Below are positions 3,918 to 54,680 of a stretch of 64,000 bases of DNA, in pieces (the stretch's first letter is position 1; each line of letters opens with the position of its first letter). A model generated the notes under the pieces. It saw only the letters and a list, made by a program, of their open reading frames with translations, was not told the origin of the DNA and ran no database searches. The DNA comes from Kalaharituber pfeilii (taxonomy: Eukaryota > Ascomycota > Pezizomycetes > Pezizales > Pezizaceae), in contig WHUZ01000066.1 of NCBI GenBank assembly GCA_015179045.1, positions 296,648 through 360,647 on the forward strand, in the 5' to 3' direction. Position numbers and translations under genes: made by a program.

Positions 3918-3973
3918 AATTTTTTTTTTTTTAAATATCATTACTCGCGTGTTGCCCTGTGGGCTATGGCGAA
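3918..3973 (-). mobile_element. Mini LINE-tail retroposon, lineage A
   Basis: A 56-bp insertion between exact 10-bp duplications GCATTATGAA (3908-3917 and 3974-3983). In its own orientation (minus) it is the LINE 3' hairpin, starting at the stem foot (TCGCCATAGCCC), then the linker GAGTAATGATATTT-like and poly(A). There is no coding capacity and no Pol III promoter boxes inside. It has the hallmarks of target-primed reverse transcription. Confidence 0.85.
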
Positions 3974-4264
3974 GCATTATGAACAATATTGTATCTGTGT
4001 TGTCGCTATTATAGCCCTCACTTCAGCGCGCAAATCCGAAGACAATTGCTGAAACAGGACTCTTAAAATTGCTAATCCTCCATCAAAAAAAGAATAGCTC
4101 CCAACCCGTAAAGAAATCTGAAAATGTGATGACTTTCCTATGAACGCCAGCCAAGTACTCCCATCGTAAATGCCACCATTACAGAAAGCCTTCCATGAAA
4201 AAGTAAGCAGGGCATACGCAGAGAGAATTCTCATGTAAAGCTTTGATCTTTCATGCCCTCCAGA

Positions 4265-4292
4265 AATTTTTTTTTTTACTCGCATGCCACCG
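4265..4292 (-). mobile_element. 28-bp retro-insertion, truncated inside the hairpin
   Basis: Exact 11-bp duplications TGCCCTCCAGA (4254-4264 and 4293-4303) flank only 28 bp. These are, on the minus strand, the last ~15 nt of the lineage-A hairpin (CGGTGGCATGCGAGT) followed by poly(A). It is one of the shortest insertions in the window. Confidence 0.85.
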
Positions 4293-4324
4293 TGCCCTCC
4301 AGATAATCATACACCCGCTGTATC

Positions 4325-4836
4325 CTATACTACTACCACTCCCACCAACCACCCTCCTTCATCTACCCCTCGTTCATGCTTGTCAAGTAGGAAATACGAC
4401 CCCCATAGCCCCCAAACCCACCTTACCCATTCCATACCATTGTTTGACGGCATCCGCTCCGCCCAAGAGGGGGCATGCAGCTGATCCAGGTATGTATTTT
4501 CTGGGATCAATGTTTCCTCTCTCAACCATCCTTCCACTGCGGCTGCCCCCGTCTTCACGACTGTTATATCCCAGTAGGGATTATTTCGCAACACGTGAGA
4601 TGAGAGCCCACTCTGGTGGAGGATAGATTGGAATGCTGGTGCCGATTCATCCACTTGGGGAGGAGGATACGTTAGTGGGAGCCTCAGCGTCCGAACCCGA
4701 TAGTCCAACAACTGAACTTTCATGACGAGTGTGATTACCTTGAGAGGTGGAGGTGGGACAAGAGCGACAGTGGACGGTAGGGCGTTGTTGTCCTGATTAA
4801 CACACGCAACCATTGCTTCCGCCACCGGACAGTCTG
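4325..4836 (-). CDS. Unrecognised protein, better copy of the 1659-2090 family
   Basis: An open minus-strand frame of about 166 codons enters from the retro-insertion at 4837 and runs to 4325. Visible blocks are PPPLKVITLVMKVQLLDYRV, a PPPQVDESAPAFQ segment, NNPYWDITVVKTGAAAVEGWL and W-A-E-R. Composition is ordinary for a soluble protein, with no signal peptide or membrane segment. With the insertion at 4837-4877 removed, the frame continues upstream, so the real start is lost or further upstream. Family unknown; possibly mobile-element encoded, since it is repeated at 1.7-2.1 kb. Confidence 0.45.
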
Positions 4837-4877
4837 TTTTTTTTTTGTTTTTTTTATATTATCAATACTCACGTGCT
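4837..4877 (-). mobile_element. Mini LINE-tail retroposon, lineage A, truncated in hairpin
   Basis: A 41-bp insertion between 16-bp near-perfect repeats (GCCACCGGACAGTCTG at 4821, GCCACTGGACAGTCTG at 4878, one mismatch). On the minus strand it holds the 3' arm of the hairpin (AGCACGTGAGTATTGAT) and an A-rich tail with one C. It interrupts the reading frame at 4325-4836. Confidence 0.8.
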
Positions 4878-4992
4878 GCCACTGGACAGTCTGAGCCATC
4901 CCTCCGGGAGGTCTGTGCACTATCCTTTAAACCTCTACCATATGGCCACCACGTAGGGTTCGGGTATGACCATCCTAGAGATAGAGATGGAG

Positions 4993-5267
4993 GAAAATGG
5001 CCAGGAGGATACTCGGACCTAAAGACACCCCCTCAATCAGAAGGGGAAAGAGACAAACTGGTGGAGCTGATGGAATGGGCGGAAAGAGATTAGCAGACGG
5101 GACGTTATCTTTGACCTTTATTTTCATTCAGGCATCACGTTTAGGGTTATTTTCATTCAGGCATAACAGTGTCATACTTAGCGTTATTTTTCATATCTAA
5201 TGTAACTAAACCTCGCCATAGCCCATAGGGCGGCATATGAGTAATGGAATTAAAAAAAAAAAAAAAA
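4993..5267 (+). mobile_element. 5'-truncated Tad-like LINE (275 bp) with target duplication
   Basis: Exact 14-bp duplications AGATAGAGATGGAG lie at 4979-4992 and 5268-5281. The insert ends ORF2 with a frame reading LVELMEWAERD then stop at about 5093, homologous to ILEWAGEE at 53700. A 120-nt 3' UTR, the lineage-A hairpin (CTCGCCATAGCCC ... GGGCGGC) and poly(A) follow. This copy physically links the hairpin to a LINE ORF2 C-terminus, so the tiny copies elsewhere are LINE tails. Confidence 0.85.
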
Positions 5268-5284
5268 AGATAGAGATGGAGACA

Positions 5285-6290
5285 GTGTTCCCAACGGGCC
5301 GGCCAGGCCAGGCCATTTGCGTAAATTTAAGCGATTTTAGAATTTAACCCAGGTGAATTAGATTTTAATAGTCCTGGATATTTCCACTATTAGTAATTGA
5401 CAGTCGCCCATTAGGTAAAATTACTGATAATTATCAACCTCATTAACCTCTCAGATTCGACGGCCTATAACTCTATAAGTTTCTAACGGAATCAAGCAGT
5501 GGTTCTGAAGCAGAAGGGGTGCCGAAGTCTGCAAATACAGTGGCTGGTAGTGAGCGGCACGAGCCGAGCCAAGATCATGCTAGTGTTTTTCTTGACAGCT
5601 CGCTAAAATGCTTAGCCAGTGCAAGGTTTCATAAACTGTAAATACCTAATATAGTAATAATTAGAGACTTGGAGCTCATTCTGACCTACCAACAACTTCG
5701 AAATGCACAATTTAGCTGATAGTAGTGGGAAAGATGAAAATTTAGCTTAGTTTAGTTTAGTTTGTCAATATTATGTATATAATCAATCCAGGCTCGAGCT
5801 CATGCCACGCCAGCTCGAGCCAGCTCGAGCCGCTCACTAGTGGCTGGAGGAGAGTTATGAATATTGGGAGATTTTGCTGAAGGTATCATCATCAAAGAAT
5901 TGAGTCCCGTCTGTTGTATTATCTAATAGGTCCTTTATTTCTAAAATATATATACTTGAATATAAAGTGTGATACATACTTGACTAAAGTCGTAGACCAA
6001 TGCGGTTTAAAATTCTAGATATACGGGAGATTCTACCCATTCAAGTACTCAAACAATCGGGTAAATGCTGGCCTCACTTCACCTGGATAGCTCTGGAGTG
6101 ATTCGTTTAATTGGCTCGAACCTGCCTGAATGGCGCTCTTACCATTCTTTCTATATAAAGTTGCATGATACAAGCTCTTCAGTGCGTCATCATCCTCAAT
6201 GGCCTGCAACTCTAGAATCATGACATTATTATAGTATAGCATGCTGACACTTAGTAGGTACAATAAGCAGTCCACTCTCAATATCTTTTA
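5285..6290 (-). mobile_element. GGCC-rich-end DNA transposon R1, copy 1
   Basis: One end (CCCAACGGGCC then repeated GGCCAGGCC, 5290-5325) is followed by sequence also found, reverse-complemented and interrupted, at 42020-42396 and 46674-46760. The minus strand has an 82-codon frame (6281-6033) ending in AFTRLFEYLNG that matches the decayed copy near 42010-42110. GGCC-rich inverted ends are seen at both borders of the 42-47 kb copy. Superfamily not assigned. It is host to a hAT element at 5548-5839. Confidence 0.55.
5548..5839. mobile_element. Non-autonomous hAT element (TAGTGAGCGGC family), copy 1
   Basis: Exact 8-bp duplication GTGGCTGG (5540-5547 and 5840-5847). Terminal inverted repeats begin TAGTGAGCGGCACGAGCC and end in its partial complement (GAGCCGCTCACTA). 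Subterminal GAGC/GCTC repeats are abundant. Eight-bp duplications and TAGNG ends are hAT features. It has no coding sequence and is 292 bp long. The transposase source is not in this window. Confidence 0.85.
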
Positions 6291-6299
6291 GCCATGTTG

Positions 6300-6450
6300 T
6301 AATATCAATTTCTTCTAGATTCGGGTCTGGAACATCTTCTTCTTCAGGGTCCGAAGTATCTTCATTAGCTAGAGCATCTTTATTTACTGGAGCATCTTTG
6401 TTAGCTGGAGCATCTTCGTTAGCTAGAGTATTCCGTTACGAGATGACTAC
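6300..6450 (-). repeat. Short acidic-protein tandem repeat (18-bp units)
   Basis: Repeated GCTGGAGCATCTT-like units at 6360-6425 would read on the minus strand as tandem N-E/K-D-A-P-A. A D/E-rich stretch follows. It may be the end of the Gypsy remnant or part of R1; I cannot decide which. Confidence 0.35.
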
Positions 6451-7190
6451 CCAGGGCCCATGGTTCATTTATCACATTAGCTTATGCAACTGTAAGTTTG
6501 CCTTCTTTGAATATTGCTGTATAGGTTCCTGAAGGTTCATTACCTTCTTGTTATGTGATAGCATCTGGGCATCCCATAGCTAATTCCGGTCAATTCTTGA
6601 TAAATTAATAATGTAATCGAATTCAGCAAGCTTTTCGGCCCATTCTGCCTGTTATATATTTAATCTTAGCTTAGTCTGGAAGTACTGTAGTCTTTGATGA
6701 TCTGTATATACTTCAAACTGCATTATTAAACTAAGAAACTATGTATGTCAGTGTAGTAAAGAGCTGACAATTACTTATAACTCTTTATCATGTATAGGCC
6801 AGTTGCGTTAATGTTACTTTAGTAACCATAAATGGTAGTTTACTAATTTCCACTGTCAGGCTTCTCCCTTATTTTTATCTGTTGCTGGATATAATTGAGA
6901 GAATACTCTTACAATAGCTTGATTTAATATATCTGTTTCAATGAGTGTAGGTGGTATTCTATCATACTGTGCAAGTATAGGAGCAGATTTAAATAGTTTT
7001 TTCAATTCATCAAATGCACTCTATTGTTGTTCAGTCCAGGACCATGGTATATCCTTACAAGTCAACTCAATGAGTGGCTTAGTTTATACACTGTAATTCT
7101 TGATAAATCATTTGTAGAAGTTAATGAATCCTAGAAAGGACTGTACTTTTTTCTTTCTTTGCAGTGCTTTCTAATCTTGGAGAGTAGTGT
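6450..7190 (-). pseudogene. Ty3/Gypsy RT-RNase H remnant
   Basis: Minus-strand translation gives recognisable Gypsy polymerase pieces in order. QSFLGFINFYK...FIKNYSVY is the RT connection region. KPLIELTCKDIPWSWTEQQ follows, then AFDELKKLFKSAPILAQYD, a T-L-I-E-T-D RNase H start and VYTDHQRLQYF. Several in-frame stops and high A+T show long decay. No matching pair of LTRs was found, although 7345-7520 has a CTCTATATATAGG TATA-like block. Confidence 0.75.
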
Positions 7191-7555
7191 GATCGCGATC
7201 CCAATGTTGGGGAGTAGGGTACTTCGTCATCCATATCTATTTGTGCAAGCGAGTAACTTCAAAGGGTTGAAGGCGAGAACGTTTGTTGAGTAAAGGTAAA
7301 AGGTAAAGGTGAAAGGTAAAGCGTTGAGGTAAAAGGTAAAAGGTAAGGCGTTGTAATGTTACGGTGTCTGCGATTGCAGCGAAATGTAGGTGTAACTTAG
7401 GACAACGCTTGGAACTTGACCTTTGTATAGAGGCCGTGGAGACCTCTATATATAGGCGTCCAGCGTGTCGGTTATTTGCATTATTCTATTTAACATTGAG
7501 GGCTAACTAACAAGCTTCTCTCTCTTCACCATCATAACTATGGATGGCGTGATTA
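7191..7555. other. Intergenic; possible old LTR, simple repeats
   Basis: Contains a purine-rich simple repeat (AAAGGTAAAGG-like, 7285-7345). A promoter-like stretch has CTCTATATATAGG at about 7444. It could be an eroded LTR of the adjacent Gypsy remnant. I see no second copy, so this is only suggested. Confidence 0.3.
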
Positions 7556-8069: not shown

Positions 8070-8131
8070 CTTTTTTTTTTTTCTGTTTTTTTGTCACGTC
8101 ACCGCGCTTGCAGCTGTTCGCCATGGCAGGG
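8070..8131 (-). mobile_element. Mini retroposon, lineage B
   Basis: A 62-bp insertion with 8-bp flanks CATGACCT/CATGAGCT (8062, 8132; one mismatch). In its own orientation it begins at the stem foot (CCCTGCCATGGCGAACAGCT), continues GCAAGCGCGG then TGACGTGAC, and ends in an A-rich tail. Same structure as 39850, 43150 and 49700. Confidence 0.7.
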
Positions 8132-8139
8132 CATGAGCT

Positions 8140-8880: not shown

Positions 8881-8884
8881 GAGT

Positions 8885-15098: not shown

Positions 15099-15161
15099 AC
15101 ATCGCCATAGCCCACAGGGCGGCACGCGATTAATGCAATTAAAAAAAAAAAAAAAAAAAAA
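15099..15161 (+). mobile_element. Mini LINE-tail retroposon, lineage A
   Basis: A 63-bp insertion with 8-bp flanks GATTTTCT (15091-15098 and 15162-15169). It begins 2 nt before the stem foot (ATCGCCATAGCCC), closes the stem with GCGATTAATG, and ends in poly(A)21. The stem base is A-T here, as in the longer LINE copies at 38980 and 53515. Removing it restores the MULE frame (AEN-PFDYPEH). Confidence 0.8.
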
Positions 15162-21443: not shown

Positions 21444-24400
21444 TCAGACGTTGCAGCCAAGTTGACGTGAGAACCTGATGTGCTTCACATGTTCGAGGGC
21501 TTTGGTGCACAGATCGGAAGGGTTGGTATCTGTTTGGAGATAGTCAAGGGAGAAATCACCAGCAGCAAGATGCTCACGAGTGAAATGGTAGTGAATATCT
21601 ATATGCTTCGTTTTTTGGTGTTGTACTGGATTGTTGGAGATATCGATGGAGGCTGTATTGTCACACCAGAGATGTATTGGAATTTCGAGGCCGAGTTCCT
21701 GAAATCCATGGAGGTACCAGACAGCTTGACGAGCACAGAGGGAGAGGGCAACGTACTCTGATTCTGTAGTAGAAACAGAGACGCAGTTTTGTTTCTTAGA
21801 TCCCCATGAGATTAGACAACCTCCCAATGTGAATGCATATCCAGACCATGAACGTCGAGTATCCAAGCACGGTGCATGTGCGGCATCCGAGTATCCAACG
21901 AGAGCAAGTGGCTGATGACGAGGGTATTTCAAATTCCAATGACGTGTTCCAGAAAGATAACGAAGAACCCTTTTAAGAGCTGTATGATGCGATTCGAGGG
22001 GACGAGAAGCAAACTGAGAGAGAAAAGAGACAGAGAATGCAAGATCCGGGCGAGTTCCAGTAACAAGATACATGAGTGAACCAATTATTTGCTGATACAG
22101 GTTGGTGTCGACAGGCTGTTCCTCAGGTGTAGCTTTGCAGAGTTTGACCTTAGGGTCCAGCGGAGTTGTAACTGACCGGCAGTTATCCATACCGAATTTT
22201 CGAAGGATTTGTTCGGTGTACTGGGACTGGGATAGGATAATGCTCTCTCTATCTTGTATAACTTCGATACCTAGTAACCACTGCAGTTTCCCCTTTACAG
22301 TCACTGTAAAGTGCTTCTTTAGATGCTCAGTTAAGAGATCCAGGTCGGCGCGGGTACCACAGACAGTAAGATCATCAACGTAAACCACAAGAATAGTCCT
22401 GCGGCCGGCATTATAGAAAACGAAGACGCATGGATCGAAGTGTAACGGTGTAAAACCAAGGGCCGCAATTACTGAGGATAGTTTTTCATACCACTTCAGA
22501 GGTGCTTGTTTAAGCCCATATAATGCCTTCTTGAGACGAAGAACCTGGCCTTCTAGGCCGATGCCTGGTGGAGGCAGCATCCAGATTTCTTCGTCCAAAT
22601 CGCCATTCAGAAACGCTGTCTTGATATCCAATTGCTCAAGTAACAAGTCCAGTGAGGCAGCGAGGGCAATAACGAGACGGAGGGAATCATACCGTGTGAC
22701 GGGTGCGAACGTCTCATCATAGTCAATACCGGGTTTCTGACTATACCCTTTTACTACCAACCGTGCCTTGTACCGATCAACAGATCCATCAGCTCGTAGC
22801 TTAATCTTAAAGACCCATCGAGAATGTATGGCCTTTCGACCTGCAGGTAACTCCGTGATATCATGCACATCCCAGACTTTGGCATCCTGAATTGACTGGT
22901 ATTCCTCCTGAATTGCGTCAGCCCATTGGGCGTAGTCATAGCATGACATGGCTTCTTCGTAGGACTGAGGTTCGCGAGCTAGAAGTGCTGGAAAGTAGTT
23001 AAACTCAGAGCCCTTTTTGACCTCTCTCTTAGGTTGTACACGAGAAGGACCAGGTGAGGAGCTGCGATTTCCACTATCTTCGTTTAGAAGCTGTCGTTCG
23101 GCTAACGCGGATTGTATTGCCTCAGGGAATGATTCGCCGTAGGCTTTCCACCATTCCGGTTCGACCGGTGGAGGTGAGGGAGGAGTAGTAGTCGATTGTG
23201 CAGGAGGTGCCGTAGTTTGAGGGAGTATTGTGGTATCACGGGGTATAGATGCGGTTGCTGGTTTACTGGACGTTTGAGGAAACGTTCCAGGTATACTCTG
23301 CAACTGGTCGTCAGTGGGTTCGATTGGCTTGCGAGATTGGGATTCTGTGGAGGAGACAGGTTGTTCAGTAGGAGGAGGAGCAGAGGAGAGTTCGATGTCG
23401 ACCGTATTGAGATGTGATACGAATCGAACTTGTCGAACGGCCTCCACCGAACGTTTGGATGGGATGTAGATGCGGAATAACTCAGATGATTCAGTATATC
23501 CGACTAAGTATCCTTCCAGTGCACGTGGGTTGAGCTTACTTCCAGGACCGCGAATTTGCTCAGGTATGTGAACGTAGCACTTGGTGTAGAATGGGCGTAA
23601 GTGTCCTATCATAGGTCGTTTCCCATGAAGGAGTTCATATGGTGTTTTTCCCTTTAAGACCGTATGAGGGAGGCGGTTCTTGAGATAGGTTGCCGTAGAA
23701 TAAGCTTCTGGCCACAAGAACCTAGGAGAATTTCCTAGAGATGGTCGGACCATGTTCGAAATGGTGAGGTTGTATCTCTCAGCGACACCATTCGATTCTG
23801 GTGAGTAGGCGGCGGTAACCTCATGAGTGATGCCATTTTCGGCACAGAAGTTGTTCCATTTGGTGTTGATATACTCACCACCTCTATCTGACCTGATGCG
23901 ACGGGGGTATCTACCAGTGTTCGTATGCACCTTGTTACAGAGCGCAATGAGGTGGTCGGTGGCGTCACTTTTGCGAGCCATAAACCGAATTTCAGCGAAC
24001 CGGGAGAAGTCGTCGATGAAGGTCATATAATAGAGATTTCCGCCTAACGATTGCGTTGAAAACGGGCCGGCGACATCCGTATGAATGAGGTCAAAGGGGG
24101 TAGTCGTCCGGGTTTCTAGGGGTAAAGGGGTCCTATACGTGGAATTATACAGAGCACATTTGTCGCAAAGGAAGTGGGAAGGTCGCCTGGGTAGCTTTTC
24201 GCCATCAGCGTAACGGTCAAGAGCGCTTCCCCACATCTGTGGAGAAGTATGACCCAGTGCTTCATGCCAGAACTGTACACTTGTTAGATATGCATGACCG
24301 GATCTTGGGAGCACGGGTATTCGCAGGAGACCATGCTCACGGAGAGCAATGAAACAAGATTTATTATCAGCCTTCCTAACAATTCTGATCCAATCATCCT

Positions 24401-24911
24401 CACCAATTATGCGAAACCTCTTTTGGTCAGCCAGCTGATTCCATGAGACCAAACATCCTTCATTCCAATCAGGTAAATACAGTACATAAGGAAGGAAAAG
24501 CTCTTGAACACGGCCATCAATCTTCACACTCATTCTAACACTTCCCTTGTGCGTACTCCAGAGTACGGTACCTCCTCCAACCTTGATCGGAGTGCGATCT
24601 AGAGTCGGATTATCTAGGTAGGAAAGGTTAGAAGAGATATGATGTGATGCGCCGGTATCAAAGAACCATACCTCGTCAGTTTCTGCATTGTCAGCCAATA
24701 GGGCTGTACCAAGAGGAGTAGAGGGAGGAGGCGGAGGAGAGGCAGCAAGGTAGGCGACGCCTGAGGACATATTGGGAGGTTGGACAGAGGCGGCGGGAAG
24801 GACCGTGAGCTGAGAGGAGGGAGAAGCAACGGCGAGATGAGCGGTACCGGAGGCGGCGGGAACGACGGCGAGCTGAGCTGTACCGGATTGACTAGCCTTA
24901 AAGGCAGCCAT
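21444..24911 (-). CDS. Copia Pol polyprotein (protease, integrase, RT, RNase H)
   Basis: 1155 codons, uninterrupted. Near residue 80 is the aspartic protease motif WFFDTGASHHIS. The integrase zinc finger (HEALGH...CDKC) follows at 215-260. The integrase core has D residues in HTDVAGPF and DDFSRFAEI, and a DRGGEY...ESNGVAERYN segment with the catalytic E. The RT start is IHSRWVFKIK...YKARLVVKGY, with DIKTAFLNGDL and the YVDD box (VVYVDDLTVCG). RNase H carries YSDAAHA, TTESEYVAL and the C-terminal KHIDIHYHFTREH. The frame is -1 relative to gag. The pol frame has a TAA just upstream of the first ATG, so expression needs frameshifting or internal initiation. All catalytic residues I can check are present. 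Confidence 0.95.
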   Translation of the reverse strand: MAAFKASQSGTAQLAVVPAASGTAHLAVASPSSQLTVLPAASVQPPNMSSGVAYLAASPPPPPSTPLGTALLADNAETDEVWFFDTGASHHISSNLSYLDNPTLDRTPIKVGGGTVLWSTHKGSVRMSVKIDGRVQELFLPYVLYLPDWNEGCLVSWNQLADQKRFRIIGEDDWIRIVRKADNKSCFIALREHGLLRIPVLPRSGHAYLTSVQFWHEALGHTSPQMWGSALDRYADGEKLPRRPSHFLCDKCALYNSTYRTPLPLETRTTTPFDLIHTDVAGPFSTQSLGGNLYYMTFIDDFSRFAEIRFMARKSDATDHLIALCNKVHTNTGRYPRRIRSDRGGEYINTKWNNFCAENGITHEVTAAYSPESNGVAERYNLTISNMVRPSLGNSPRFLWPEAYSTATYLKNRLPHTVLKGKTPYELLHGKRPMIGHLRPFYTKCYVHIPEQIRGPGSKLNPRALEGYLVGYTESSELFRIYIPSKRSVEAVRQVRFVSHLNTVDIELSSAPPPTEQPVSSTESQSRKPIEPTDDQLQSIPGTFPQTSSKPATASIPRDTTILPQTTAPPAQSTTTPPSPPPVEPEWWKAYGESFPEAIQSALAERQLLNEDSGNRSSSPGPSRVQPKREVKKGSEFNYFPALLAREPQSYEEAMSCYDYAQWADAIQEEYQSIQDAKVWDVHDITELPAGRKAIHSRWVFKIKLRADGSVDRYKARLVVKGYSQKPGIDYDETFAPVTRYDSLRLVIALAASLDLLLEQLDIKTAFLNGDLDEEIWMLPPPGIGLEGQVLRLKKALYGLKQAPLKWYEKLSSVIAALGFTPLHFDPCVFVFYNAGRRTILVVYVDDLTVCGTRADLDLLTEHLKKHFTVTVKGKLQWLLGIEVIQDRESIILSQSQYTEQILRKFGMDNCRSVTTPLDPKVKLCKATPEEQPVDTNLYQQIIGSLMYLVTGTRPDLAFSVSFLSQFASRPLESHHTALKRVLRYLSGTRHWNLKYPRHQPLALVGYSDAAHAPCLDTRRSWSGYAFTLGGCLISWGSKKQNCVSVSTTESEYVALSLCARQAVWYLHGFQELGLEIPIHLWCDNTASIDISNNPVQHQKTKHIDIHYHFTREHLAAGDFSLDYLQTDTNPSDLCTKALEHVKHIRFSRQLGCNV

Positions 24912-25846
24912 CCTTGACTGGTAGAGTCCTTAAGAAATGAGCAGTTAATATGTACGTGCCCAATGTAATTGAGGTCATGTTTTTTACACCATGAACACTC
25001 ATTAGGACCAGCGTCACCTTTCCCTTTTCCTTTTCCTTTAGTCTGAGAGTTCTTCTTCTTGTCTTTTGACTTCGTCGGCTTCTTCTGTGATGCAGCCGCA
25101 ACCAAGGCACTACCGGAGGTGGGGACGTTGGTTGTAGAGTCAATGAGCGAGGAGCGAATACTGTTATATGATTCGGTTTCGGCACGGGAAAGAAGAATCT
25201 CCTAGAACTGCGATTGCGACGGAGGGAGCGAATTGATGAGCATAACAGACTTCCAGGAGTCGTCAGACCAGGACTGTTTAAGACCTTGGAGGTATTCTTT
25301 GTCGCTGGTAGTGACAGAGTTCACGCGCTGTGCGAACCGACTCCAGAGTGCTTCGAATTGCTGTACATGGTCAATAGTGGGTGTAGCCTCATCCTTATGG
25401 CAATTGAGTACTGCAAGGAGGGCATTGACGTTTGACATGACGTTTTTTCGATCGAACTTGTCTTCTATGGCTTTCCATGCCGTCTTGGCGAGCTCATTAT
25501 CGGAAATAAGGTAGTGATATTCGTCATCGATCATTTCCGTAAGGAGGGCCTTAGCGTAGTTGTTTTTGCGCTTCCAGTTGTTATGTTTGTCTGTGTCCGG
25601 TTTTTGCTCAGTACCTAAGACAATTTCCCAAACTTCGACGGTTTCCAGGTGCTCTTTGGCCCTTGAGGCCCAGGAGGTGTAGCTTCCTTTGCCATCAAGC
25701 CTGGTGAACCGGTTAATCCGGTAGTTAGGGATGGACCATGCAACATCAGTCATTTTGACGTAATGAGGAGGGATGCGACAGGCGACAGTGATGACAACAA
25801 GGATGCGACGGCGACAGCGACAGTGATGCGCAGAGTTGATATCCAC
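24900..25846 (-). CDS. Copia Gag, with in-frame UAG and frame change to Pol
   Basis: Starts at 25846 or, more likely, at the internal MTDVAWSIPNYR (about 25753). Copia gag blocks are RLDGKGSYTSWASRAKEHLE, LVISDNE-type LTEMIDDEYHYLISDNELA and WKAIEDKFD. The frame stops at UAG (25202-25204) after SQSQF, then stays open in the same frame: EILLSRAETESYNS, K-rich SKDKKKNSQTKGKGKGKG, and a CSWCKKHDLNYIGHVHINC knuckle (C-x2-C...H-x4-C). Pol opens at 24911 in the -1 frame. The stop and the shift may be programmed or disabling. Confidence 0.85.
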
Positions 25847-32940: not shown

Positions 32941-35380
32941 TGCCTGCATAAACTGAGGAAGAAATGCAACATGCAGTTGATTTCGCTAAACGGCACCCCT
33001 CCATTCCAAAGGCACGCATAGCAGCTGAATATGGAGTGAATGAAGTTACACTACGGCGCAGAGTGAAGGGCGAACGCAAGGCACACAAATTTGCTTATCG
33101 GCATCGGCAGCTTTTTACTCCAGGAGAAGAATCAGCACTCAAAGAACACTGCCTTGAAATGGCCGATCGCAGTTTCCCACTATCCCACGCTTTGTTTGAG
33201 CAAATGGCACAAGATATTCTAATTTCTCGTGCTCAGAAGCATAGTACTACTGAGAAACAATGTACTGGTAGTATATCAGAGATCAGGAAGTAGTGAGCGG
33301 CACGAGCCGAGCCAGCTCGAGCCAGCTCGAGCCCGAGCTCGCGCGAGCTAGCTCGAGCTCAAACGAGCCAAGATCATGCTTGTGTTTTTCTTGACAGCTC
33401 GCTAAAATGCTTAGCCAGTGCAACGTTTCATAAACTGTAAATACCTACTATAGTAACAATTAGAGACTTGGAGCTCATTCTGACATAACAACAACTTCGA
33501 AATGCACAATTTAGCTGATAGTAGTGAGAAACATGAAAATTTAGCTTGGTTTAGTTTAGTTTGTCAATATTATGATCCAGGCTCGAGCTAGCTCGAGCTC
33601 ACCCTCCAGCTCGGCTCGAGCTAGCTCGTGCCGCTCACTATCAGGAAGGTTCATAAGGATGCAGTAGCTAAGGGATTAGCACCTGCTATTGGGAAGTACT
33701 GGGTATCACGGTTTCTTAAACGCCATCCGGAACTTGACAAAAAGTTCGTCCAATACCACGAGCGTACACGGCGAAAAGCAGGTGCATCTAAAGAACTCCA
33801 AGCGCACTTCTATAGGCTTCTAGCAAATCTCATTCGGCGGTACAATGTCACTGAACCGAACATATGGAATTGCGATGAAAAAGGCATTATTATTGGAGAT
33901 GATAAGATCAAGAAAAAATACATTGTTCGCGCAGGGACCAAAGCTGCAGAAGCACTAACTGAGGGTCTAGAGAGTTTGTTACTGTTTTGGAGACAGTTTC
34001 TGCAGCAGGGGCGCATATACCACCATATGTGGTATACAAGGGCAAAGTACATGTTGAAGCATCATATGGAGAAGGGGGGTACATAGCGCTGATGCGGCGT
34101 TTGGTATGTCACCAAATGGATATTTGGATGATGATTTAGGCTTCGAGTACATCTCTATACACTTTGAGCACCATACCAGGCCAGCATATGATAAATCTCT
34201 GAAGAAGCGCCCTACCCGAATTCTTAGTATTGATGGGCATAGCTCTCATGTCTATTGGCGGACGGTTGAATTTGCTCTCAATCATGATATCCAAATGATA
34301 TGCCTCCCACCTCATAGCACTCACTTTATGCAACCTCTTGATGTGGGATGCTTTGGCTTGCTTCAGAGAGCCCATCGGCGCAATCTACAGTACTGGCTAC
34401 GTCATCATACCTTCGAAGTACTGAAATGAACGGTGTTTTGGGAAATTTTGTACGAGGCTCGCAAGGAAGTATATACCATAGATATCATCAAGAAAGCATG
34501 GAATAAATTTGGATGCTGGCCAGTCAATATTGATAATGCGCGAGGAGTACCAGCTACAGTGGGTAATGGGCCTGAGACATCAAGGACGAAAAAGGTTAAA
34601 TTTGCGCCTACAACCAATCAGCTTCAAGATACCATGATCCCTGCATTTCCTCCCCCCGCGAAGCTTCCCCCTACCAATACTATACTATCACCACCGACGA
34701 AGCTGCGTAATCTTGCTCGCCAAATCGACCAATTCGCATTAACTCCTCAACGTAATACAACCATACGAGAATTCATTGATCTTATTATGCAGCAAGTTGC
34801 ATACTTCCATGAGATTTGCCCACGAGGGGAAAAATTTACGCAGCTCAGAAGTGGAAAAGAAATCAAGAAGGCACCAAGCAAACGTCGAGTACGTCAAGGG
34901 CGCGTTTTAACACGCAAGGAGATTGAGGAGGGCCAGAAGAAGTTGATTAAAAAAAAGGAGGATGAAGCTGCTGCTGCTGTATTAAAGGCTGCTATGGTAG
35001 CAGAGAAAAAGGTCCGGGATGCAGAAAAGGCAGCTCGAGAAGCTGAATGGAAGCAGGCACGAGATGCAGCACTCGCAGCAGGACTCCCTATCCCAAAAAA
35101 GCCCCGTGGACCTCGCAAAAAAAAAGGCTCCAGCCACTGATCCAATGGAGGGGTCCTTAAAAGCGGGGGAGGGGGGGTTAACAGAGAATGCAGAAGGTAA
35201 GAATGCTATAGTTGTTACAAAGAATAGTGCTAATGTCACCCAAGGCCCCCCTGTAGAGGAAATATCAATTGAGGAGGATTGGGAGGACGAGGACGATGAA
35301 ATCTTTGTACAACATCTTCGGCAGCTGGAAATATATAATTATATGGTCCTCGCCATAGCCCCCAGGGCGGCACGCGAGTA
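32941..35380 (+). pseudogene. Pogo/Fot1-like transposase (DDE_1), broken
   Basis: MPA then a TAA where the sister copy has Tyr. Then Psq HTH, CENP-B HTH (interrupted by the hAT MITE at codon ~112), NIWNCDEKG (catalytic D), a frame disruption between 33965 and 34100, RILSIDGHSSHVYW (second D), LPPHSTHFMQPLDVGCFG (third D) and a long K/E/A-rich coiled C-terminal region. A second frame slip lies in an A9 run at 35116, and the mini LINE-tail interrupts the end at 35347. About five lesions make it non-functional. Confidence 0.85.
33291..33640. mobile_element. Non-autonomous hAT element, copy 2
   Basis: Exact 8-bp duplication TCAGGAAG (33283-33290, 33641-33648). Perfect ends TAGTGAGCGGCACGAGC / GCTCGTGCCGCTCACTA. 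350 bp. The empty site is provided by the sister pogo copy at 29580 (ATCAGGAAGG uninterrupted), which proves the boundaries. Confidence 0.93.
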
Positions 35381-35401
35381 ATGAAATAAAAAAATAAAAA
35401 A
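35347..35401 (+). mobile_element. Mini LINE-tail retroposon, lineage A
   Basis: A 55-bp insertion between exact 12-bp copies of ATAATTATATGG (35335-35346, 35402-35413). TC, then the whole hairpin from its foot (CTCGCCATAGCCC...GCGAG), TAATGAAAT and an A-rich tail with two Ts. It lies in the transposase C-terminus. Confidence 0.92.
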
Positions 35402-38979: not shown

Positions 38980-39355
38980 TTTTTTTTTTTTTTAATTTCA
39001 TTAATCGCTTGCCGCCCTGTGGGCTACGGCGATGGGCTAGGTAAATAAAACAGCTATAAAAGACAAAACTGACTTCTCTCTCCTAAATACATAGTAAAGG
39101 GGAATAGAGCGTCCTTATCCTGTCTCGTCCAGCAAGTCCAGCAGCTTTCTCAACTGGTCTCCGTCCTTGGACTTCTCCACCCTATAGATTTCCTTTTCCC
39201 CCCCTGGCCATCGCTTCTTCAATACCCGGCAGTTATCCATCAGGTGTGTCAATTCTCATCTCCTTCCCCGCACCACCAGCAATCTGGGTCCTGCGCCTGC
39301 CCTATTTTGTGTCTCCATGTCTTCAGCCCCTTGTTGCCCAGGAGGCCCGCAATTT
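38980..39355 (-). mobile_element. 5'-truncated Tad-like LINE (376 bp) with target duplication
   Basis: Exact 13-bp duplications TCGTTCCGGCCTT (38967-38979, 39356-39368). Minus strand: ORF2 C-terminal zinc knuckle (DPDCWWCGEGDE), then the 3' UTR, hairpin with A-T stem base (ATCGCCGTAGCCC...GCGATTAATG) and poly(A). One of four copies that tie the hairpin to ORF2. Confidence 0.9.
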
Positions 39356-39849: not shown

Positions 39850-39903
39850 GCCCTGCCATGGCGAACAGCTGCATGCGGGGTCACGTGCAAAAAAAAAAAA
39901 AAA
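39850..39903 (+). mobile_element. Mini retroposon, lineage B (type copy)
   Basis: A 54-bp insertion between exact 13-bp copies of ACGTGATCGAAAC (39837-39849, 39904-39916). Starts 1-2 nt before the stem foot: CCCTGCCATGGCGAACAGCT then GCATGCGGGG (stem CCCTGC/GCGGGG plus ATG/CAT), TCACGTGC and poly(A). It seems to have inserted into the tail of an older B copy. Confidence 0.9.
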
Positions 39904-40047: not shown

Positions 40048-40082
<35 letters not shown>

Positions 40083-40117
40083 CATTACTCGCGTGCCTCC
40101 TGTGAGGCTATGGCGAG
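40048..40117 (-). mobile_element. Mini LINE-tail retroposon, lineage A
   Basis: 12-bp duplications AACCAATCTGAT at 40036-40047 and 40368-40379, the second displaced by a later LTR insertion. Poly(T)34, CATTACTCGCG, hairpin with arms GCCTC/GAGGC instead of GCCC/GGGC, ending at the foot GGCGAG. Confidence 0.88.
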
Positions 40118-40121
40118 GTAA

Positions 40122-42174: not shown

Positions 42175-42237
42175 GTACCTAAATCCTCGCCATAGCCCAC
42201 AGGATGGCACGCGAGTAATGATATTTAAAAAAAAAAA
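42175..42237 (+). mobile_element. Mini LINE-tail retroposon, lineage A
   Basis: Exact 12-bp duplications AGTATGTATCAC (42163-42174, 42238-42249). Ten nt of LINE sequence before the foot (GTACCTAAAT), hairpin, GAGTAATGATATTT and poly(A)12. Confidence 0.9.
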
Positions 42238-43149: not shown

Positions 43150-43215
43150 ACCCTGCCATGGCCAAGTGCTACAAGCGGGGTTATGTGATTAAAAAAAAAA
43201 AAAAAAAAAAAAAAA
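43150..43215 (+). mobile_element. Mini retroposon, lineage B, inside transposase exon 1
   Basis: Exact 14-bp duplications ATCAAGATGTATTT (43136-43149, 43216-43229). AC, then the B hairpin (CCCTGCCATGGCCAAGTGCT, ACAAGCGGGG), TTATGTGATT and poly(A)26. Removal restores the transposase frame (FNQDVFELL). Confidence 0.95.
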
Positions 43216-45180
43216 ATCAAGATGTATTTGAACTCTTGATGTCATCTAGAGGAGAATCATCCAGAAATATCCGGTACCAGCGAGGTCCTAAATATAGCGA
43301 AAGGCAGCAACGAAGAAAACGACAAACAGCAGCAGAATTGGCAGCAGCAGCTAATGGATCTCGTAGTATTACATACTACTTCAGTAAGACACAGTCCGAG
43401 TCTATTACATCTGAGGCTTCTACTACTAGGGAAGCAGAGACTGAATTAGATTCAGATACACAAGCTATTAAGGATCTTGAGAAGAAGCTGCAATCAAAGA
43501 AGATAAAGCTTGAAGGGCAGAATTTAATGCGGCATAGGGCAGTGCTTTCTCTTCTGTATACATGTCGGTTACGAAAGCCTGGTGAGACACGAGAAGAGAT
43601 GGCTTTTGCTGTTGCACGGTGCTATAATAGAGGGAAATATTTTGCAAGAAAGGTTATAACATGGGAACTGCAATGGAAAAAGGTAAAGCATATATGAGGA
43701 TCTTAATTTCTTATACTAATATATATAGGATCGAACTATATCAGAAGGGCACCGAGGCTGCTTTAGTAAAGTCAAGTCATGGTTTAATGATGAGGGGGTT
43801 CAATTAGCAGTACGGGAATGGCTAAGTGGTACTGGTGAAAGTAAGTAGTATAGAATACATCAATGCGCAGTTAGAAAAATAAATGATTAATGTTAAAATA
43901 GACATTACAGCTTATGGGCTAGCGAAAGCAGTTGGTGAATACTTAAATTCACAGCGTGCGGTTTCTGTTATAGCGGCTACATTACAAAACCACGACAGCA
44001 ATACAGGGGAAAATACTTCAATAGCTCCCCGTACACTTCGTATAAGAGCTAGAACTGCACGGCGATGGCTAAAAAGAATGGGATTTCAATATAATACTGT
44101 CACAAAGTCAGTTTATATCGATGGACATGAGCGGGAAGATGTGATTGCATATCGAAATTCCGTTTTTTTACCCCAATGGAAGAAAGCTCAACACCGCTTT
44201 GTGATTTTTAAAGAGGATGGATCATTTGAAATGCCACCAGCTAATGTTCTCAATGGAGAAAAACCATTAGTTTTAATTACGCATGATGAGTCTACATTCA
44301 ATGCTAATGATGGCAAGCGTAGGATCTGGATGAAAGATGGAAAACAACCATTACGACCTAAGGGAAAGGGTAAAGGCATAATGGTCTCTGGTTTTCTTAC
44401 TCCGGGTGGAATTCTACGTATTCCTGATCATATTTCAGATGATGAGCTTTTACGAAATCCTATGTGGCCAATATCAGAAACTGGCAAGCCAGTTCGTGAA
44501 GCACTTGAATTATTGGAATATGGAAAGGAGAATTATTGGACAGGTGACAAAATGGTTGAACATACTATTCGAACAGCACTACCTATCTTCCGGTATGCAT
44601 TTCCTAATTGTCAAGCCTTGTTTGCATTTGATAATGCTTCAAATCACTGTTCATTTGCTCCAGATGCACTTGTAGCAGCACGAATGAATCTCAATCCTGG
44701 TGGAGAACAACCTTTGATGCGTGAAGGATTTATTCATGCAAAGCAAATACCTCAAGCTATGGTATTTCCTATGAACTATCCTAATATATTACTACGGGGA
44801 AAGCCAAAAGGTATTCGTCAAGTGCTGAAAGAAAGAGGGCTTTGGAAAAGCCATCGGTCAGATGGGTTTGCTTTTCTTCTGAAATGTCCAACCTCTCATG
44901 ACCGTACTGGCTGTACACCAACTCTTGCCGGAGGCTGTTGCGCACGAACTTTACTCTCTCAGCAACCTGATTTTATACAGCAAAAAGGCCGACTAGAAGA
45001 AGAATTAGAAGCTGCTGGTCAACAGGTAATTTTTTATCCTAAGTTTCATTGTGAACTTAATTTTATTGAGCGTTATTGGTGTTCTGTTAAGTATTATTTA
45101 CGAGAAAACTGTTCTTATTCATTTGATGGTTTACGAGATACTCTTCCTCTGGCATTACATTCTGTTTCTTCTGCATCTAC

Positions 45181-46022
45181 TGTAGTTCACCACTTTCCCG
45201 GACACACCACTTTCCCGGACACATTTACCACCAAAACTGCGCAACTTTCGCACTCAATATCTCAACAACCATAACAGCATTTGTGAATGCGCTTTGTATA
45301 GCTATTAGACAAACTGTAATTCTTGCTATCTAGCACTTTTTCTTCATCAAAAATTGTGGGTGCAAAGGGATTATGGCTTGTCGCATTTTTGTTGGAAGGC
45401 TTGGCATTTATTTGTATGGGATCTCCATACAAAACGTTCATAAGACTTGAATATAGTCCTACTCTTCAACGCTAATTACAATAGCTATGATAGTATATGT
45501 CCAGAATCACCTGAAGAGTTATAGTAAGGTGCTGCATTTAGTTTACTTTCATTTGTTGAATTGTAGAGTTGGTGTACAACTATCTAGTTTCTCATACAAA
45601 TGGTTTCTATGGGAAATATGAATATTGTGAATGATTTCACAACCACTACAGGTATTACCTAACTACGTTGCTCATAGTTTCCAACTGAGTGATCCTATTG
45701 AATGTGAGTGTCTGAGTTTTTTTCATGAATTGATTGCATGTGTAGCATGCAGAATTCGGGGGCGGTGACATTTGTATGGAGATCCCATACAAATAAATGC
45801 CAAGCCTTCCAACAAAAATGCGACAAGCCATAATCCCTTTGCACCCACAATTTTTGATGAAGAAAAAGTGCTAGATAGCAAGAATTACAGTTTGTCTAAT
45901 AGCTATGCAAAGCGCATTCACAAATGCTGTTATGGTTGTTGAGATATTGAGTGCGAAAGTTGCGCAGTTTTGGTGGTAAATGTGTCCGGGAAAGTGGTGT
46001 GTCCGGGAAAGTGGTGAACTAC
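45181..46022. mobile_element. Foldback element with ~252-bp inverted repeats
   Basis: Arms 45181-45433 and 45771-46022 are near-perfect inverted copies. The outer ends hold a direct duplication of CACTTTCCCGGACACA. The 337-bp middle has no coding. It is inserted in the transposase gene. TA lies at both borders (GTA-GTTCACC and GAAC-TAC), compatible with a TA target, though the target is palindromic so the exact duplication is ambiguous. Confidence 0.85.
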
Positions 46023-47963: not shown

Positions 47964-48016
47964 TAGCCTGTAGGGCGGCACGCGAGTAATGAAATAAAAA
48001 AAAAAAAAAAAAAAAA
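47964..48016 (+). mobile_element. Mini LINE-tail retroposon, lineage A, truncated in the 5' arm
   Basis: Exact 11-bp duplications AATGAGTCGGA (47953-47963, 48017-48027). Starts within the stem (TAGCCTGTAGGGCGGC), then GCGAGTAATGAAAT and poly(A)22. Confidence 0.92.
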
Positions 48017-48167: not shown

Positions 48168-48550
48168 TAGTGAGCGGCACGAGCTAGCTTGAGCCTGGAT
48201 TGATTATATCTATATTATTGACAAACTAAACTAAACTAAGCTAAATTTTCATCTTTCTCACTACTAACGAAGTTGTTGGTAGGTCAGAATGAGCTCCAAG
48301 TCTCTAATTATTACTATATTAGGTATGTACAGTTTATGAAACCTTGCACTGGCTAAGCATTTTAGCGAGCTGTCAAGAAAAACACAAGCATGATCTTGGC
48401 TCGTTTGAGCTCGAGCTAGCTCGTACAAGCTCACCTCGCCATAGCCTGACAGGCGGCTAGCGAGTAATGATTTAAAAAAAAAAAAAAAAAAAAATCGTAC
48501 AAGCTCGGGCTCGAGCTGGCTCGAGTTGGCTCGGCTCGTGCCGCTCACTA
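48168..48550. mobile_element. Non-autonomous hAT element, copy 4
   Basis: Ends TAGTGAGCGGCACGAGC and GTGCCGCTCACTA. The interior matches copies 1-3. Flanks GTTACAAT (with TTA before the element) and GTTACAAA give an imperfect 8-bp duplication. Contains a mini LINE-tail at 48433. Confidence 0.85.
48433..48494 (+). mobile_element. Mini LINE-tail retroposon, lineage A
   Basis: Exact 12-bp duplications TCGTACAAGCTC (48421-48432, 48495-48506). AC then the full hairpin with arms GCCT/AGGC (CTCGCCATAGCCTGACAGGC), GGCTAGCGAG, TAATGATTT and poly(A)22. Confidence 0.95.
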
Positions 48551-48882: not shown

Positions 48883-48949
48883 CCCTCGCCATAATCCTTA
48901 GGGCGGCACGCGAGTAATGATATAAAAAAAAAATAAAAAAATAAAAAAT
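48883..48949 (+). mobile_element. Mini LINE-tail retroposon, lineage A
   Basis: Exact 11-bp duplications CTGTCGTCCAT (48872-48882, 48950-48960). CC then the hairpin from the foot, GAGTAATGATAT and an A-rich tail with scattered T. Confidence 0.93.
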
Positions 48950-49686: not shown

Positions 49687-49699
49687 AGGAACGCTACGT

Positions 49700-49768
49700 T
49701 TTTTTTAATTTTAATTTTTATTTTTTATATCACATGACCCCGCATGCAGCTATTCGCCATGGCAGGGC
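49700..49768 (-). mobile_element. Mini retroposon, lineage B
   Basis: Exact 13-bp duplications AGGAACGCTACGT (49687-49699, 49769-49781). In minus orientation: the foot CCCTGCCATGGCGAATAGCT, GCATGCGGGG, TCATGTGATAT and an A-rich tail with Ts. Confidence 0.94.
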
Positions 49769-52273: not shown

Positions 52274-52700
52274 CTTGCGGTCTTGGCGGCTTGGCGTGTT
52301 TGCTTGGTCATTGTGTTTGCCGAGGAGGCTTCACAGTTACTGTTGGAGATTATGCAACGAGCATCACGGGACATATCACGTGAGGCTGCCATGTGTGAAG
52401 GATATGGTGATGTGCATCAACAAGGGACCAGTTGTTACATTCGCCGGCTTGCTGACTAATAGGACAAAATTGGTGTTTGCCCCTTGTACTGGTCTCGCAC
52501 GCTCACCCCTGAGCCCACGAATCATTCAATTTGAGCAAATTCAGCACCTCATATCTCTATAACGAAACCGTTTTTTGACATCGGACAACTTGAGCGAAGT
52601 TCCTAAGAGTGAGTATATTCTACATCTGCTTGCTCTTCATGGAAAAAATTGGCTAATGATGTAGCAATAGACTGGTTCTATAGAACACATTGGTCTATCC
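52274..52700. other. Divergent intergenic region
   Basis: Between the F-box start and the DDE element. The element end is not recognised (ACATCGGACAACTTGAGCG near 52580 may be near it). Short frames only. Confidence 0.35.
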
Positions 52701-53514
52701 CAAATGCCTCGTCCCACTAAGAGAAGAAGAGCTTGCCTGCGTGCTTCAGCTATAGCTAACAGGAAGAAAAAAACAACAATCACGGTGGAAGCAGATACCC
52801 ATATTCCGGCGGAAGTGGATACCCCTCTTGCAGTGGTGGATACCCCCATTATATATAGCGAAAGTGAAGAGTCTTTGGAAGATGAATCTGAGTTGGATCA
52901 AGAGGAGGAACAAAGTGATGACTTAGAGCAGGAGATTCAAGATTTGAGCATGGCAACAGATGTCTATAAGGAGTTGATGAAAAATATAATAGATGTGGAC
53001 TTTTCTTCTATTGAGTTCAAATATCAACGTGGCCCACAGGTCTGTCGCGTGACATTATGGCGACATAAGAAAGCTCAACAAGAGATGCAGCGCTCAGTGA
53101 CTGGATGTCGGCCATTAACAGCTTACTTTGCTCCATTAAATACATCAGCAGCTATAGCATCTTCAGCTACTATACTAGAGCCAAAAACTGAAGCGGAGAT
53201 CCGAATAGAGAAACTTTTAGCTGGGATTCAAGATTTGCGGAAGAAGTTAAAAAGTAAGAAAGAGATAGTACCAATTGGACAAAATTACCAACGACACCTT
53301 GCAGTATTACATTTCCTTCAACTTCAGCTACACCGGCCTCACGAAACTCGCACCTCACTATCACTTATGACAGCTCATTCATTTGATCGAGGAACCAAAA
53401 TGGCAAAGCATCTAAGGCAGTTGGAACGCGAGAGGCTTATTAGCAGGCGGATTCCCGATGGTTTTCAAGGCCTCCGAACATCTCGGTTTACTTGGTTAGA
53501 TGATGAAGGAGTTC

Positions 53515-53987
53515 TTTTTTTTTTTTTTTTTTTTTTATTTCATTAATCGCATGCCGCCCTATGGGCTATGGCGATGTTTAGTTACAGTGGTATGATGGAA
53601 AAATGATAATGAAAGAGTAAAGAAAAATCGATAATGAAAGAGTCAAGAAAAATTGAACCGTCCTATTCCTCCCCCGCCCATTCCAATATTTCCGCCATGT
53701 TTGTGTCCTTATCTAACTGTCTTATCACGTCTGCTCCTCTTGCGGTTTTCCTGTTCCATGCCGAGCAGCTACTCTTTATGTGATCCCAGGTCTCCGGCGC
53801 TTCGCCGCACCATCTGCACTCCGGGGAGGTGGCCTTTCCAATCCTGAATCTCCATTCCTTCAGTCCCTTATTGCCCAATATCCCTGCCATTGTGGCCAGA
53901 TACCGGCGTTTGTCGACCTTTTGGAGTGGGCGGTAGTTCAGTCCGGCTTGGATCCTTTCGGCAGCTCTGGATGCTTTGTATTCTTGC
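53515..53987 (-). mobile_element. 5'-truncated Tad-like LINE (473 bp) with target duplication
   Basis: Exact 13-bp duplications GATGAAGGAGTTC (53502-53514, 53988-54000). Minus-strand ORF2 C-terminus: QEYKASRAAERIQAGLNYRP, KGLKEWRFRIGKATSPECRW, CGEAPETWDHIKSSCSAWN (zinc knuckle C-x2-C...H...C) and NMAEILEWAGEE-stop. A short 3' UTR, hairpin with A-T stem base (ATCGCCATAGCCC...GCGATTAATG) and poly(A) follow. Best-preserved ORF2 end in the window. Confidence 0.95.
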
Positions 53988-54618
53988 GATGAAGGAGTTC
54001 GACTGGCAGTTCGATAGTATATTGCTAGTGTTGGTGAAGGTCTTACTTCACATGGATTAGCAAAGGCAGTTACAGAATATCTAAAACTTAATGGTGAAGA
54101 GGAGGATGATGGAATAGAGTTGGAAAATATACTTTCACCTGAATCAACTGCAAAATCCCGGTCAATTAAGGTATCTACAGCACGGCGGTGGCTACGCAAG
54201 TTAGGATTTCGGTCGAGAGAAGTCAAAAAGGGTGTATATATTGATGGTCATGAGCGAGAAGATGTTGTTCACTACCGTCAACAAGTGTTCTTACCTCGCT
54301 TTTTTGAATTATTATCTACTACAGTAAAATTTACTGTTGGTCTAGAGAAGGAGGATCATCCAGACTCGAAATTAAAAATAATTCAACAAGAACCGATTGT
54401 ACCAGCAGGAGAAAAAATAAGAATTCTCGTTACACATGATGAGTCAACATTTAATGCAAATGATGGACGCCGGCGACTATGGATTCAAGGTGATGCACAA
54501 CCCTTAGGCCAAAAATCTCGAGGGAAAGGAATTATGGTGTCAGACTTTCTTACACCAGCAGGTCGTTTACAGCATGATGGTAAATTTACTACTGAATTTC
54601 TCGAATATGGAAAAGATA

Positions 54619-54680
54619 TTTTTTTTTTTTTTTTTTTTTTATATCATTACTCGCATGCCGCCCTCTGGGCTATGGCGAGG
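54619..54680 (-). mobile_element. Mini LINE-tail retroposon, lineage A
   Basis: Exact 12-bp duplications ATGGAAAAGATA (54607-54618, 54681-54692). Poly(T)22, ATATCATTACTCGCATGCCG, CCCTCTGGGC, TATGGCGAG ending exactly at the foot. Removing it restores the transposase frame (LEYGKD-NYWTGDKMVEH). Confidence 0.96.

What the first reader, a model, noticed from the sequence alone, without database searches (positions are those of the whole stretch)
3918..54680. Tiny (41-70 bp) hairpin + poly(A) retroposons with precise target duplications
Seen directly: insertions at 3918, 4837, 8070, 15099, 35347, 39850, 40048, 42175, 43150, 47964, 48433, 48883, 49700 and 54619. Each is a ~30-nt hairpin, an 8-10 nt linker and poly(A), most between exact 8-14 bp repeats. 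The hairpin equals the 3' terminus of a Tad-like LINE also present (4993, 38980, 53515, 55473). In most short copies the 5' end falls within about 3 nt of the stem foot, which random 5' truncation would not give. Either reverse transcription stops at the stem, or a discrete ~40-nt RNA is the template. With no Pol III boxes, these would be among the smallest retroposons; I know of no described family like this.
Basis: partly seen in the sequence, partly recalled or inferred. Interest (0 to 1): 0.93.

Follow-up and report, generated by a model that had tools for sequence, protein, structure and literature searches.

The report
Tiny tail-only copies of LINE elements
In a desert-truffle genome, jumping genes of the LINE type have left many insertions made only of their last 40 or so letters, a small hairpin plus a run of A's, and many of these start almost exactly at the base of the hairpin, so the folding of the RNA seems to decide where the copy begins.

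Summary
Of the 14 sites, 12 have exact 8-15 bp target duplications. The genome is that of the truffle Kalaharituber pfeilii. The sites carry two different hairpin tails, A and B, with 3268 and 3107 exact anchor matches genome-wide and 0 in reversed controls. In samples chosen without regard to the 5' end, 20 of 53 A copies and 19 of 27 B copies with a duplication start within 3 nt of the stem foot; a uniform spread predicts 1.2 and 0.6. Further clusters: 9 of 53 A copies start in the hairpin loop or 3' arm, and 3 of 27 B copies at the foot of a second hairpin. Compensatory changes support hairpin A. Short copies match several subfamilies that also have long copies, so one tiny source gene is unlikely. 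I read them as tail-only LINE copies, most likely made from LINE RNA trimmed back to its tail hairpin; premature stopping of reverse transcription is the main rival. A new variant of a known kind: the structural rule and the abundance are the interest.

The parts
3918..3973 (-). A tail-only copy, 56 bp, 5' end at stem foot (0), duplication GCATTATGAA
4837..4883 (-). A copy starting inside the hairpin (3' arm side), 47 bp; 10 bp exact duplication, longer with one mismatch
8070..8132 (-). B hairpin plus A-tail; no exact duplication; limits from the sequence
15099..15161 (+). A tail-only copy, 63 bp, 8 bp duplication GATTTTCT, 5' end -2
35347..35401 (+). A tail-only copy, 55 bp, 12 bp duplication, 5' end -2
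39850..39903 (+). B tail-only copy, 54 bp, 13 bp duplication, 5' end at first base pair
40048..40119 (-). A hairpin with long A-tail; no duplication found; limits from the sequence
42175..42236 (+). A copy, 62 bp, 13 bp duplication, 5' end 11 nt upstream of the foot; L035 carries the same insertion and duplication
43150..43214 (+). B tail-only copy, 65 bp, 15 bp duplication, 5' end at first base pair
47964..48016 (+). A copy starting inside the hairpin (+7), 53 bp, 11 bp duplication
48433..48494 (+). A tail-only copy, 62 bp, 12 bp duplication, 5' end -2
48883..48949 (+). A tail-only copy, 67 bp, 11 bp duplication, 5' end -2
49700..49768 (-). B tail-only copy, 69 bp, 13 bp duplication, 5' end at first base pair
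54619..54680 (-). A tail-only copy, 62 bp, 12 bp duplication, 5' end -1; splits a transposase-like ORF
4993..5267 (+). longer A copy, 14 bp duplication
38980..39355 (-). longer A copy, 13 bp duplication
53515..53987 (-). longer A copy with the C-terminal end of an ORF2-like frame, 13 bp duplication
55473..57033 (-). 1.56 kb ORF1-only element with A tail, 13 bp duplication

Best explanation
They are tail-only copies of LINE-type retrotransposons. Shown: each insert is the last ~40 nt of an element (hairpin, 8-10 nt linker, A-tail) between target duplications, and its 5' end is placed by RNA secondary structure, mostly at the 5' foot of the terminal hairpin, less often in its loop (A) or at the foot of the next hairpin (B). 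Inferred: LINE transcripts are bound at the tail hairpin by the LINE reverse transcriptase, the rest of the RNA is removed by host RNases up to the protected hairpin (sometimes with a cut in the loop), and the remaining tail RNA is still used for target-primed reverse transcription, which runs to the new 5' end. The tail is then both the recognition signal and nearly the whole template. My odds: about 0.9 that these are LINE-derived tail copies with structure-set 5' ends, about 0.5 for the trimmed-RNA step.
For: 5'-end peaks: A 20 of 53, B 19 of 27 duplications within 3 nt of the foot, 12 of the 27 B exactly at the first base pair; uniform expectation 1.2 and 0.6. Same rule in two different hairpins, and 3 B copies start at or 1 nt before a second hairpin. 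The A hairpin is supported by compensatory changes at two pairs (C-G 46/A-T 16 and C-G 53/T-A 11 of 68 distinct cores); cells paired 95.9% against 33-42% when slid. Sequence just upstream of the A foot is A/U-rich and not part of a stem, so a stop there is hard to explain by a structure ahead of the enzyme, but is natural for a template end (inference). No linker-only inserts among 46 duplications. Same target signature in all classes: pyrimidine before the duplication in 39 of 43 foot, 12 of 12 inner, 28 of 31 upstream copies. Empty sites for 10 of 55 short copies. Elements bearing tail A encode RNase H, and one open frame with EN and RT hits lies just before an A tail. Short copies are 0-4 differences (10 of 20 within 1) from long-copy hairpins of several subfamilies.
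Against: Copies starting in the A loop (9 of 53) would lack an intact hairpin for recognition unless the hairpin was only nicked. No general rule upstream: of 35 copies starting above the tail hairpin, 18 begin within 2 nt of a predicted pair against 45% of 558 shifted controls. One A subfamily gives few short copies: 1 of 19 at the foot. No RNA data; ordinary hairpins of this stability are usually unwound by 5'-3' exonucleases (recalled), so bound protein must be assumed. For B the second hairpin ends right beside the foot, so a stall before it would give the same 5' end.
Confidence: 0.5

Rival explanations
1. Reverse transcription of long LINE RNA stops at the tail hairpin: the enzyme copies linker and hairpin, pauses at the upper stem or on leaving the hairpin (for instance because its own tail-binding region holds it), and lets go, so the cDNA ends there.
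For: Explains the A loop/3' arm cluster (9 of 53) without needing recognition of a broken hairpin. Template switching at fixed sites near predicted hairpins is reported for the fungal LINE MGL (PMC2104539, parts 1-3 of 5 read). For B an adjacent hairpin lies ahead of the stop.
Against: No inserts end before the first stem, where stalling should be strongest. In A there is no stem ahead at the foot (inference). The MGL rule GCC*A/U does not match the peaks; only the copy at 47964 fits it.
Confidence: 0.33
2. An independent tiny retroposon (a minimal SINE) transcribed from its own master gene.
For: Constant length and 5' end; some short copies are closer to other short copies than to sampled long ones (L029, L038, L074, L076, L103).
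Against: The subfamily of those copies also has long members: 9 of 20 by eye against 8 of 20 short by duplication. Short copies fall in several subfamilies and in both A and B. No Rfam family reaches its gathering score in the window; promoter boxes were not searched for.
Confidence: 0.06
3. Long first-strand cDNA is made and then trimmed: the single-stranded cDNA folds into the same hairpin, and its flap is cut back to the foot or in the loop before joining.
For: Predicts both A clusters as well.
Against: A folded-back 3' end should prime on itself and leave inverted repeats; none was noticed in the short inserts listed, though I ran no dedicated search.
Confidence: 0.09
4. Ordinary random 5' truncation of LINE copies.
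For: Copies starting 41-300 nt above the foot are spread out (20 of 53 A).
Against: The foot peaks exceed a uniform spread with P about 4e-18 (A) and 3e-22 (B); pre-tail lengths 53-89 nt are empty (0 of 46).
Confidence: 0.02

Closest known systems
Stringent-type LINEs with a 3' tail stem-loop (UnaL2, ZfL2-1, ZfL2-2; PMC4176376, passages seen)
   Same: A conserved 3' terminal stem-loop that the element's protein recognises; here the hairpin is likewise conserved with compensatory changes.
   Different: There the stem-loop is shown to be needed for movement; I saw no mention in the passages of copies made of the stem-loop alone. Here such copies are frequent. Protein binding was not testable.
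MINE chimeras and template switching by the fungal LINE MGL in Magnaporthe grisea (PMC2104539, parts 1-3 of 5 read)
   Same: A fungal LINE whose reverse-transcription products change at preferred template positions, with 10-20 bp duplications.
   Different: MGL parts are 230-5461 nt, joined to another RNA, with sites at GCC*A/U; here the inserts are ~18-45 nt before the A-tail, mostly without foreign sequence, and the peaks do not follow GCC*A/U.
5'-truncated LINE copies in general
   Same: LINE 3' end, A-tail, target duplications.
   Different: 5' ends are strongly clustered at hairpin boundaries instead of spread.
SINEs sharing a LINE tail (e.g. Mg-SINE with MGL, as described in PMC2104539)
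   Same: Short, non-autonomous, carrying a LINE 3' end.
   Different: No separate 5' module and no sign of a separate source gene.

Membership tests
5'-truncated LINE copies | 3' end identical to that of a LINE | tested here: met
   A tail follows RNase H-bearing and EN/RT-bearing frames; 20 short A hairpins lie 0-4 differences from long ones
5'-truncated LINE copies | target duplications and A-tail | tested here: met
   53 of 103 A and 27 of 49 B have a duplication within ~300 nt; median 13 bp, tail median 22 (86 copies)
5'-truncated LINE copies | 5' ends spread along the element | tested here: not met
   foot peaks 20 of 53 and 19 of 27
SINE | own source gene, separate from the LINE | tested here: not met
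   short copies in several subfamilies with long members; sample small
SINE | 5' part from tRNA, 5S or 7SL RNA | tested here: not met
   no Rfam match at gathering threshold in the window; inserts begin at the LINE hairpin
SINE | Pol III promoter boxes | not tested
   no box search was run
Stringent-type LINE tail | conserved 3' stem-loop | tested here: met
   95.9% of cells paired, two pairs with compensatory change (A); B pairs nearly invariant except G-T/A-T at the first pair
Stringent-type LINE tail | stem-loop bound by the element's own protein | not testable with these tools
   needs binding assay
MINE/MGL template-switch sites | 5' limits at GCC*A/U | tested here: not met
   peaks lie elsewhere; only 47964 (+7) fits
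Tad clade of LINEs | phylogenetic placement of the reverse transcriptase | not tested
   only Pfam domains EN (PF14529), RT (PF00078), RNase H (PF00075) were found; no tree

The most novel reading that the evidence does not exclude
LINE RNA broken down to its ~40-nt tail hairpin is a regular, efficient substrate: the reverse transcriptase protects the hairpin from RNases and then inserts the protected stub, so that thousands of near-minimal retroposons record, at base resolution, the footprint of tail-bound LINE RNA in vivo. They would be among the smallest natural templates known for target-primed reverse transcription.
Probability: 0.4. Interest if true: 0.75.

Novelty: new variant of a known kind. 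Interest (0 to 1): 0.6.

Why it matters
If true, hairpin plus linker plus A-tail is enough to be recognised and inserted in vivo, which makes the minimal template of a fungal LINE directly testable, and the 5'-end pattern becomes a genomic footprint of how LINE RNA is protected or copied. It also gives fungal genomes a large class of insertions of about 40-70 bp that repeat annotation may overlook (inference).

Tried and rejected
Random truncation as sole cause: rejected. One tiny source gene: the GCCTNNCAGG group looked like a candidate, but its copies (99 exact hits; 20 fetched) include 9 of 20 with LINE-like upstream sequence by eye. A general rule that upstream 5' ends also sit at stem feet: not supported (18 of 35 against 45% of 558 controls); only the B second hairpin (3 copies) and perhaps two A copies at -82 (L012, L020) fit. 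MGL rule GCC*A/U: does not fit the peaks. A subfamily with ATTG in the linker (92 hits; 20 fetched, 19 usable) gave few short copies: 1 of 19 at the foot. (59 hits of one long-form pattern) was not used further. A protein search with a LINE EN-RT stretch gave 9 relatives without informative names. Literature searches listed no paper on tail-only LINE copies that I recognised from titles and abstract starts; one search returned 0 papers, and two unrelated ones.

Dropped rows: 13 empty-site rows were listed; I dropped L136 (matches itself), window 35369 (matches its own flank) and L154 (microsatellite), leaving 10 of 55. One search included L001-L008, which had been picked by similarity to a short copy (L001 is the window itself); searches did not use them for their counts. 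Window 42175 and L035 are one insertion duplicated later and count twice at -11.
Full report
Source and scope. The window is C324:296648-360647 of a 78.0 Mb, 360-contig assembly. A window protein matches, at 96% identity, a Kalaharituber pfeilii protein on a contig of 360,647 bases, the same length as C324, so I take the organism to be that truffle.

Check of the sites. 8070 and 40048 hold the hairpin and tail but no exact repeat. The local alignment scan shows two hairpin types, A (ten of the sites) and B (8070, 39850, 43150, 49700), at scores above those of a shuffled window.

Abundance. The A anchor (3' arm, linker, six A's) has 3268 exact hits and the B anchor 3107; the reversed patterns have none. 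A general scan of A-runs of 10 or more in the DNA then held found 158 tails, 46 with a duplication of score 9 or more, about 1.0 expected from swapped flanks. Lengths before the tail: 0 (1 case), 14-25 (9), 31-32 (2), 37-45 (25), 47-52 (2), 53-89 (none), 90-150 (7). Most of that DNA had been fetched by the A anchor, so very short inserts are under-sampled there. For B, 2511 hairpins have the first base pair intact and 887 of these are preceded by the CAGGG that ends the second hairpin; 1624 of 2511 are not, an upper estimate for copies that start at the foot because CAGGG may also be lost by mutation.

5'-end distribution. To avoid choosing by 5' end, copies were taken by the anchor: for A the window, the first 30 listed places and 60 of the 70 remaining listed ones; for B 40 of the 100 listed places plus those met in other loci. 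In the final count 103 A copies gave 53 duplications within ~300 nt: 20 at -3..+3 of the foot, 10 further inside (one at +7, nine at +15..+21), 3 at -40..-4 and 20 at -300..-41. The largest other 7-nt window holds 9 and is the loop cluster. 49 B copies gave 27: 19 at -3..+3 (12 exactly at the first base pair), 1 inside (L136, a B inside a B, ambiguous), 4 at -40..-4, of which 3 at the second hairpin, and 3 farther. Uniform expectation for a 7-nt window is 1.2 and 0.6 (P about 4e-18 and 3e-22). Limits: duplications are extended to the right as far as they match, so true 5' ends may lie 1-2 nt upstream; the anchor hides inserts that begin 3' of it; copies without a duplication call (50 of 103, 22 of 49) are long or decayed and were not placed. 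The sample comes mainly from contigs C1 and C2.

Structure. Six tails fold to the expected hairpins (z-scores -1.2 to -2.5, so energy alone is modest). In 68 distinct A cores, 95.9% of cells pair against 33-42% for slid partners; two pairs show compensatory change: the foot pair (C-G 46, A-T 16) and the loop-side pair (C-G 53, T-A 11, T-G 3). In B (29 distinct cores) the first pair is G-T 16 or A-T 13 and the others hardly vary, which neither supports nor opposes it. The 5' end at exactly this first B pair, and 0-2 nt before the A stem, is why I call the rule structural. B copies starting 35-38 nt above the foot begin at or one base before a 7-bp hairpin AAGCCTG/CGGGCTT (3 of 3). The rule does not extend to all upstream ends: 18 of 35 such copies begin within 2 nt of a predicted pair against 45% of 558 shifted controls.

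What the tails belong to. L018 has a frame with RNase H (PF00075, E 8e-16) that ends 119 nt before the A anchor. At C201 an open frame of 1151 aa holds EN (PF14529) and RT (PF00078) hits, and an A tail lies about 1.3 kb beyond the RT hit (L195); the end of the frame was not displayed, so that link is by position. At C26 a 1248-aa frame with EN and RT hits lies before a B tail (L193), likewise by position. L197 has RNase H before a B-like third tail type. The window element 55473-57033 has an ORF1-like frame, then the A tail; relatives of that ORF1 peptide lie in 11 of the 60 loci L069-L128 and 8 of the 20 loci L169-L188, so an ORF1-only element is a common long carrier of the A tail. No tree was made, so the clade name Tad is not tested.

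Same machinery for all classes. The base before the duplication is a pyrimidine in 39 of 43 foot, 12 of 12 inner and 28 of 31 upstream-starting copies, A and B together. Duplications have median 13 bp and tails median 22 (86 copies). Paralogous empty sites in the held DNA were found for 10 of 55 short copies, up to 99.2% over 129 nt (L150 against L031), including two that start in the hairpin loop (L036, L106). The copy at 54619 has an empty paralogue in the window at 82.8% over 64 nt.

One source or many. The hairpins of 20 foot-class A copies differ from the nearest of 52 long copies by 0-4 bases (0: 3, 1: 7, 2: 4, 3: 4, 4: 2) and fall in several subfamilies. One group (GCCTNNCAGG) seemed short-only; among 20 fetched members 8 are short by duplication, 9 have LINE-like upstream sequence by eye and 3 are unclear. 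A subfamily with ATTG gave only 1 of 19 at the foot, so the share of short copies differs between subfamilies, which I cannot explain.

Mechanism. An enzyme moving 3' to 5' on the RNA should stall before a stem, giving linker-only inserts; none was seen. Stopping just after a stem, with unpaired RNA ahead in A, fits a template that ends there. I therefore prefer trimmed tail RNA, protected by the LINE protein that is known in other LINEs to bind the tail stem-loop (PMC4176376, passages). The loop cluster can be read as a cut in the loop, or as stopping of the enzyme; it is the best argument for the rival. For B the second hairpin ends next to the foot, so B alone cannot decide. In Magnaporthe the LINE MGL switches templates at GCC*A/U near predicted hairpins (PMC2104539, parts 1-3 of 5); that motif does not explain the peaks here.

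Novelty. Tail recognition by stem-loops and 5' truncation are known. I found no description of abundant copies consisting of the tail hairpin alone with 5' ends at the stem foot, in the searches and 61 of an open-licence library, judged from titles and the start of abstracts; subscription papers are not covered. I rate it a new variant of a known kind.

Noticed in passing
window 55473-57033 (-): A 1.56 kb element with an ORF1-like frame, no reverse transcriptase, an A tail and a 13 bp duplication; relatives of its ORF1 peptide lie near A tails in many fetched loci. It resembles in layout the ORF1-only HAL1 elements of mammals (recalled).
   Followed up: partly
window 54018-54848 and 43883-45274: Two related transposase-like frames; the first is split by the tiny copy at 54619.
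   Followed up: partly
L197 about 620-760; L166; L131: A third tail type, close to B (CCCTGCCATAGGCTGGTAGCCTGTATGCGGGG), with at least one copy that seems to start near its foot (L131, duplication score 8.3, below my threshold).
   Followed up: no
window 52192 on the reverse complement: A run of 25 A's between two copies of TTCGTCGAGT with nothing before the tail; about one such case is expected by chance.
   Followed up: no
loci L169-L188: A subfamily with ATTG in the linker has very few short copies (1 of 19 at the foot), unlike the others; cause unknown.
   Followed up: partly
window 21444-24929 (-): Long frame that looks like a Copia-type retrotransposon polyprotein (by eye from the listing).
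   Followed up: no
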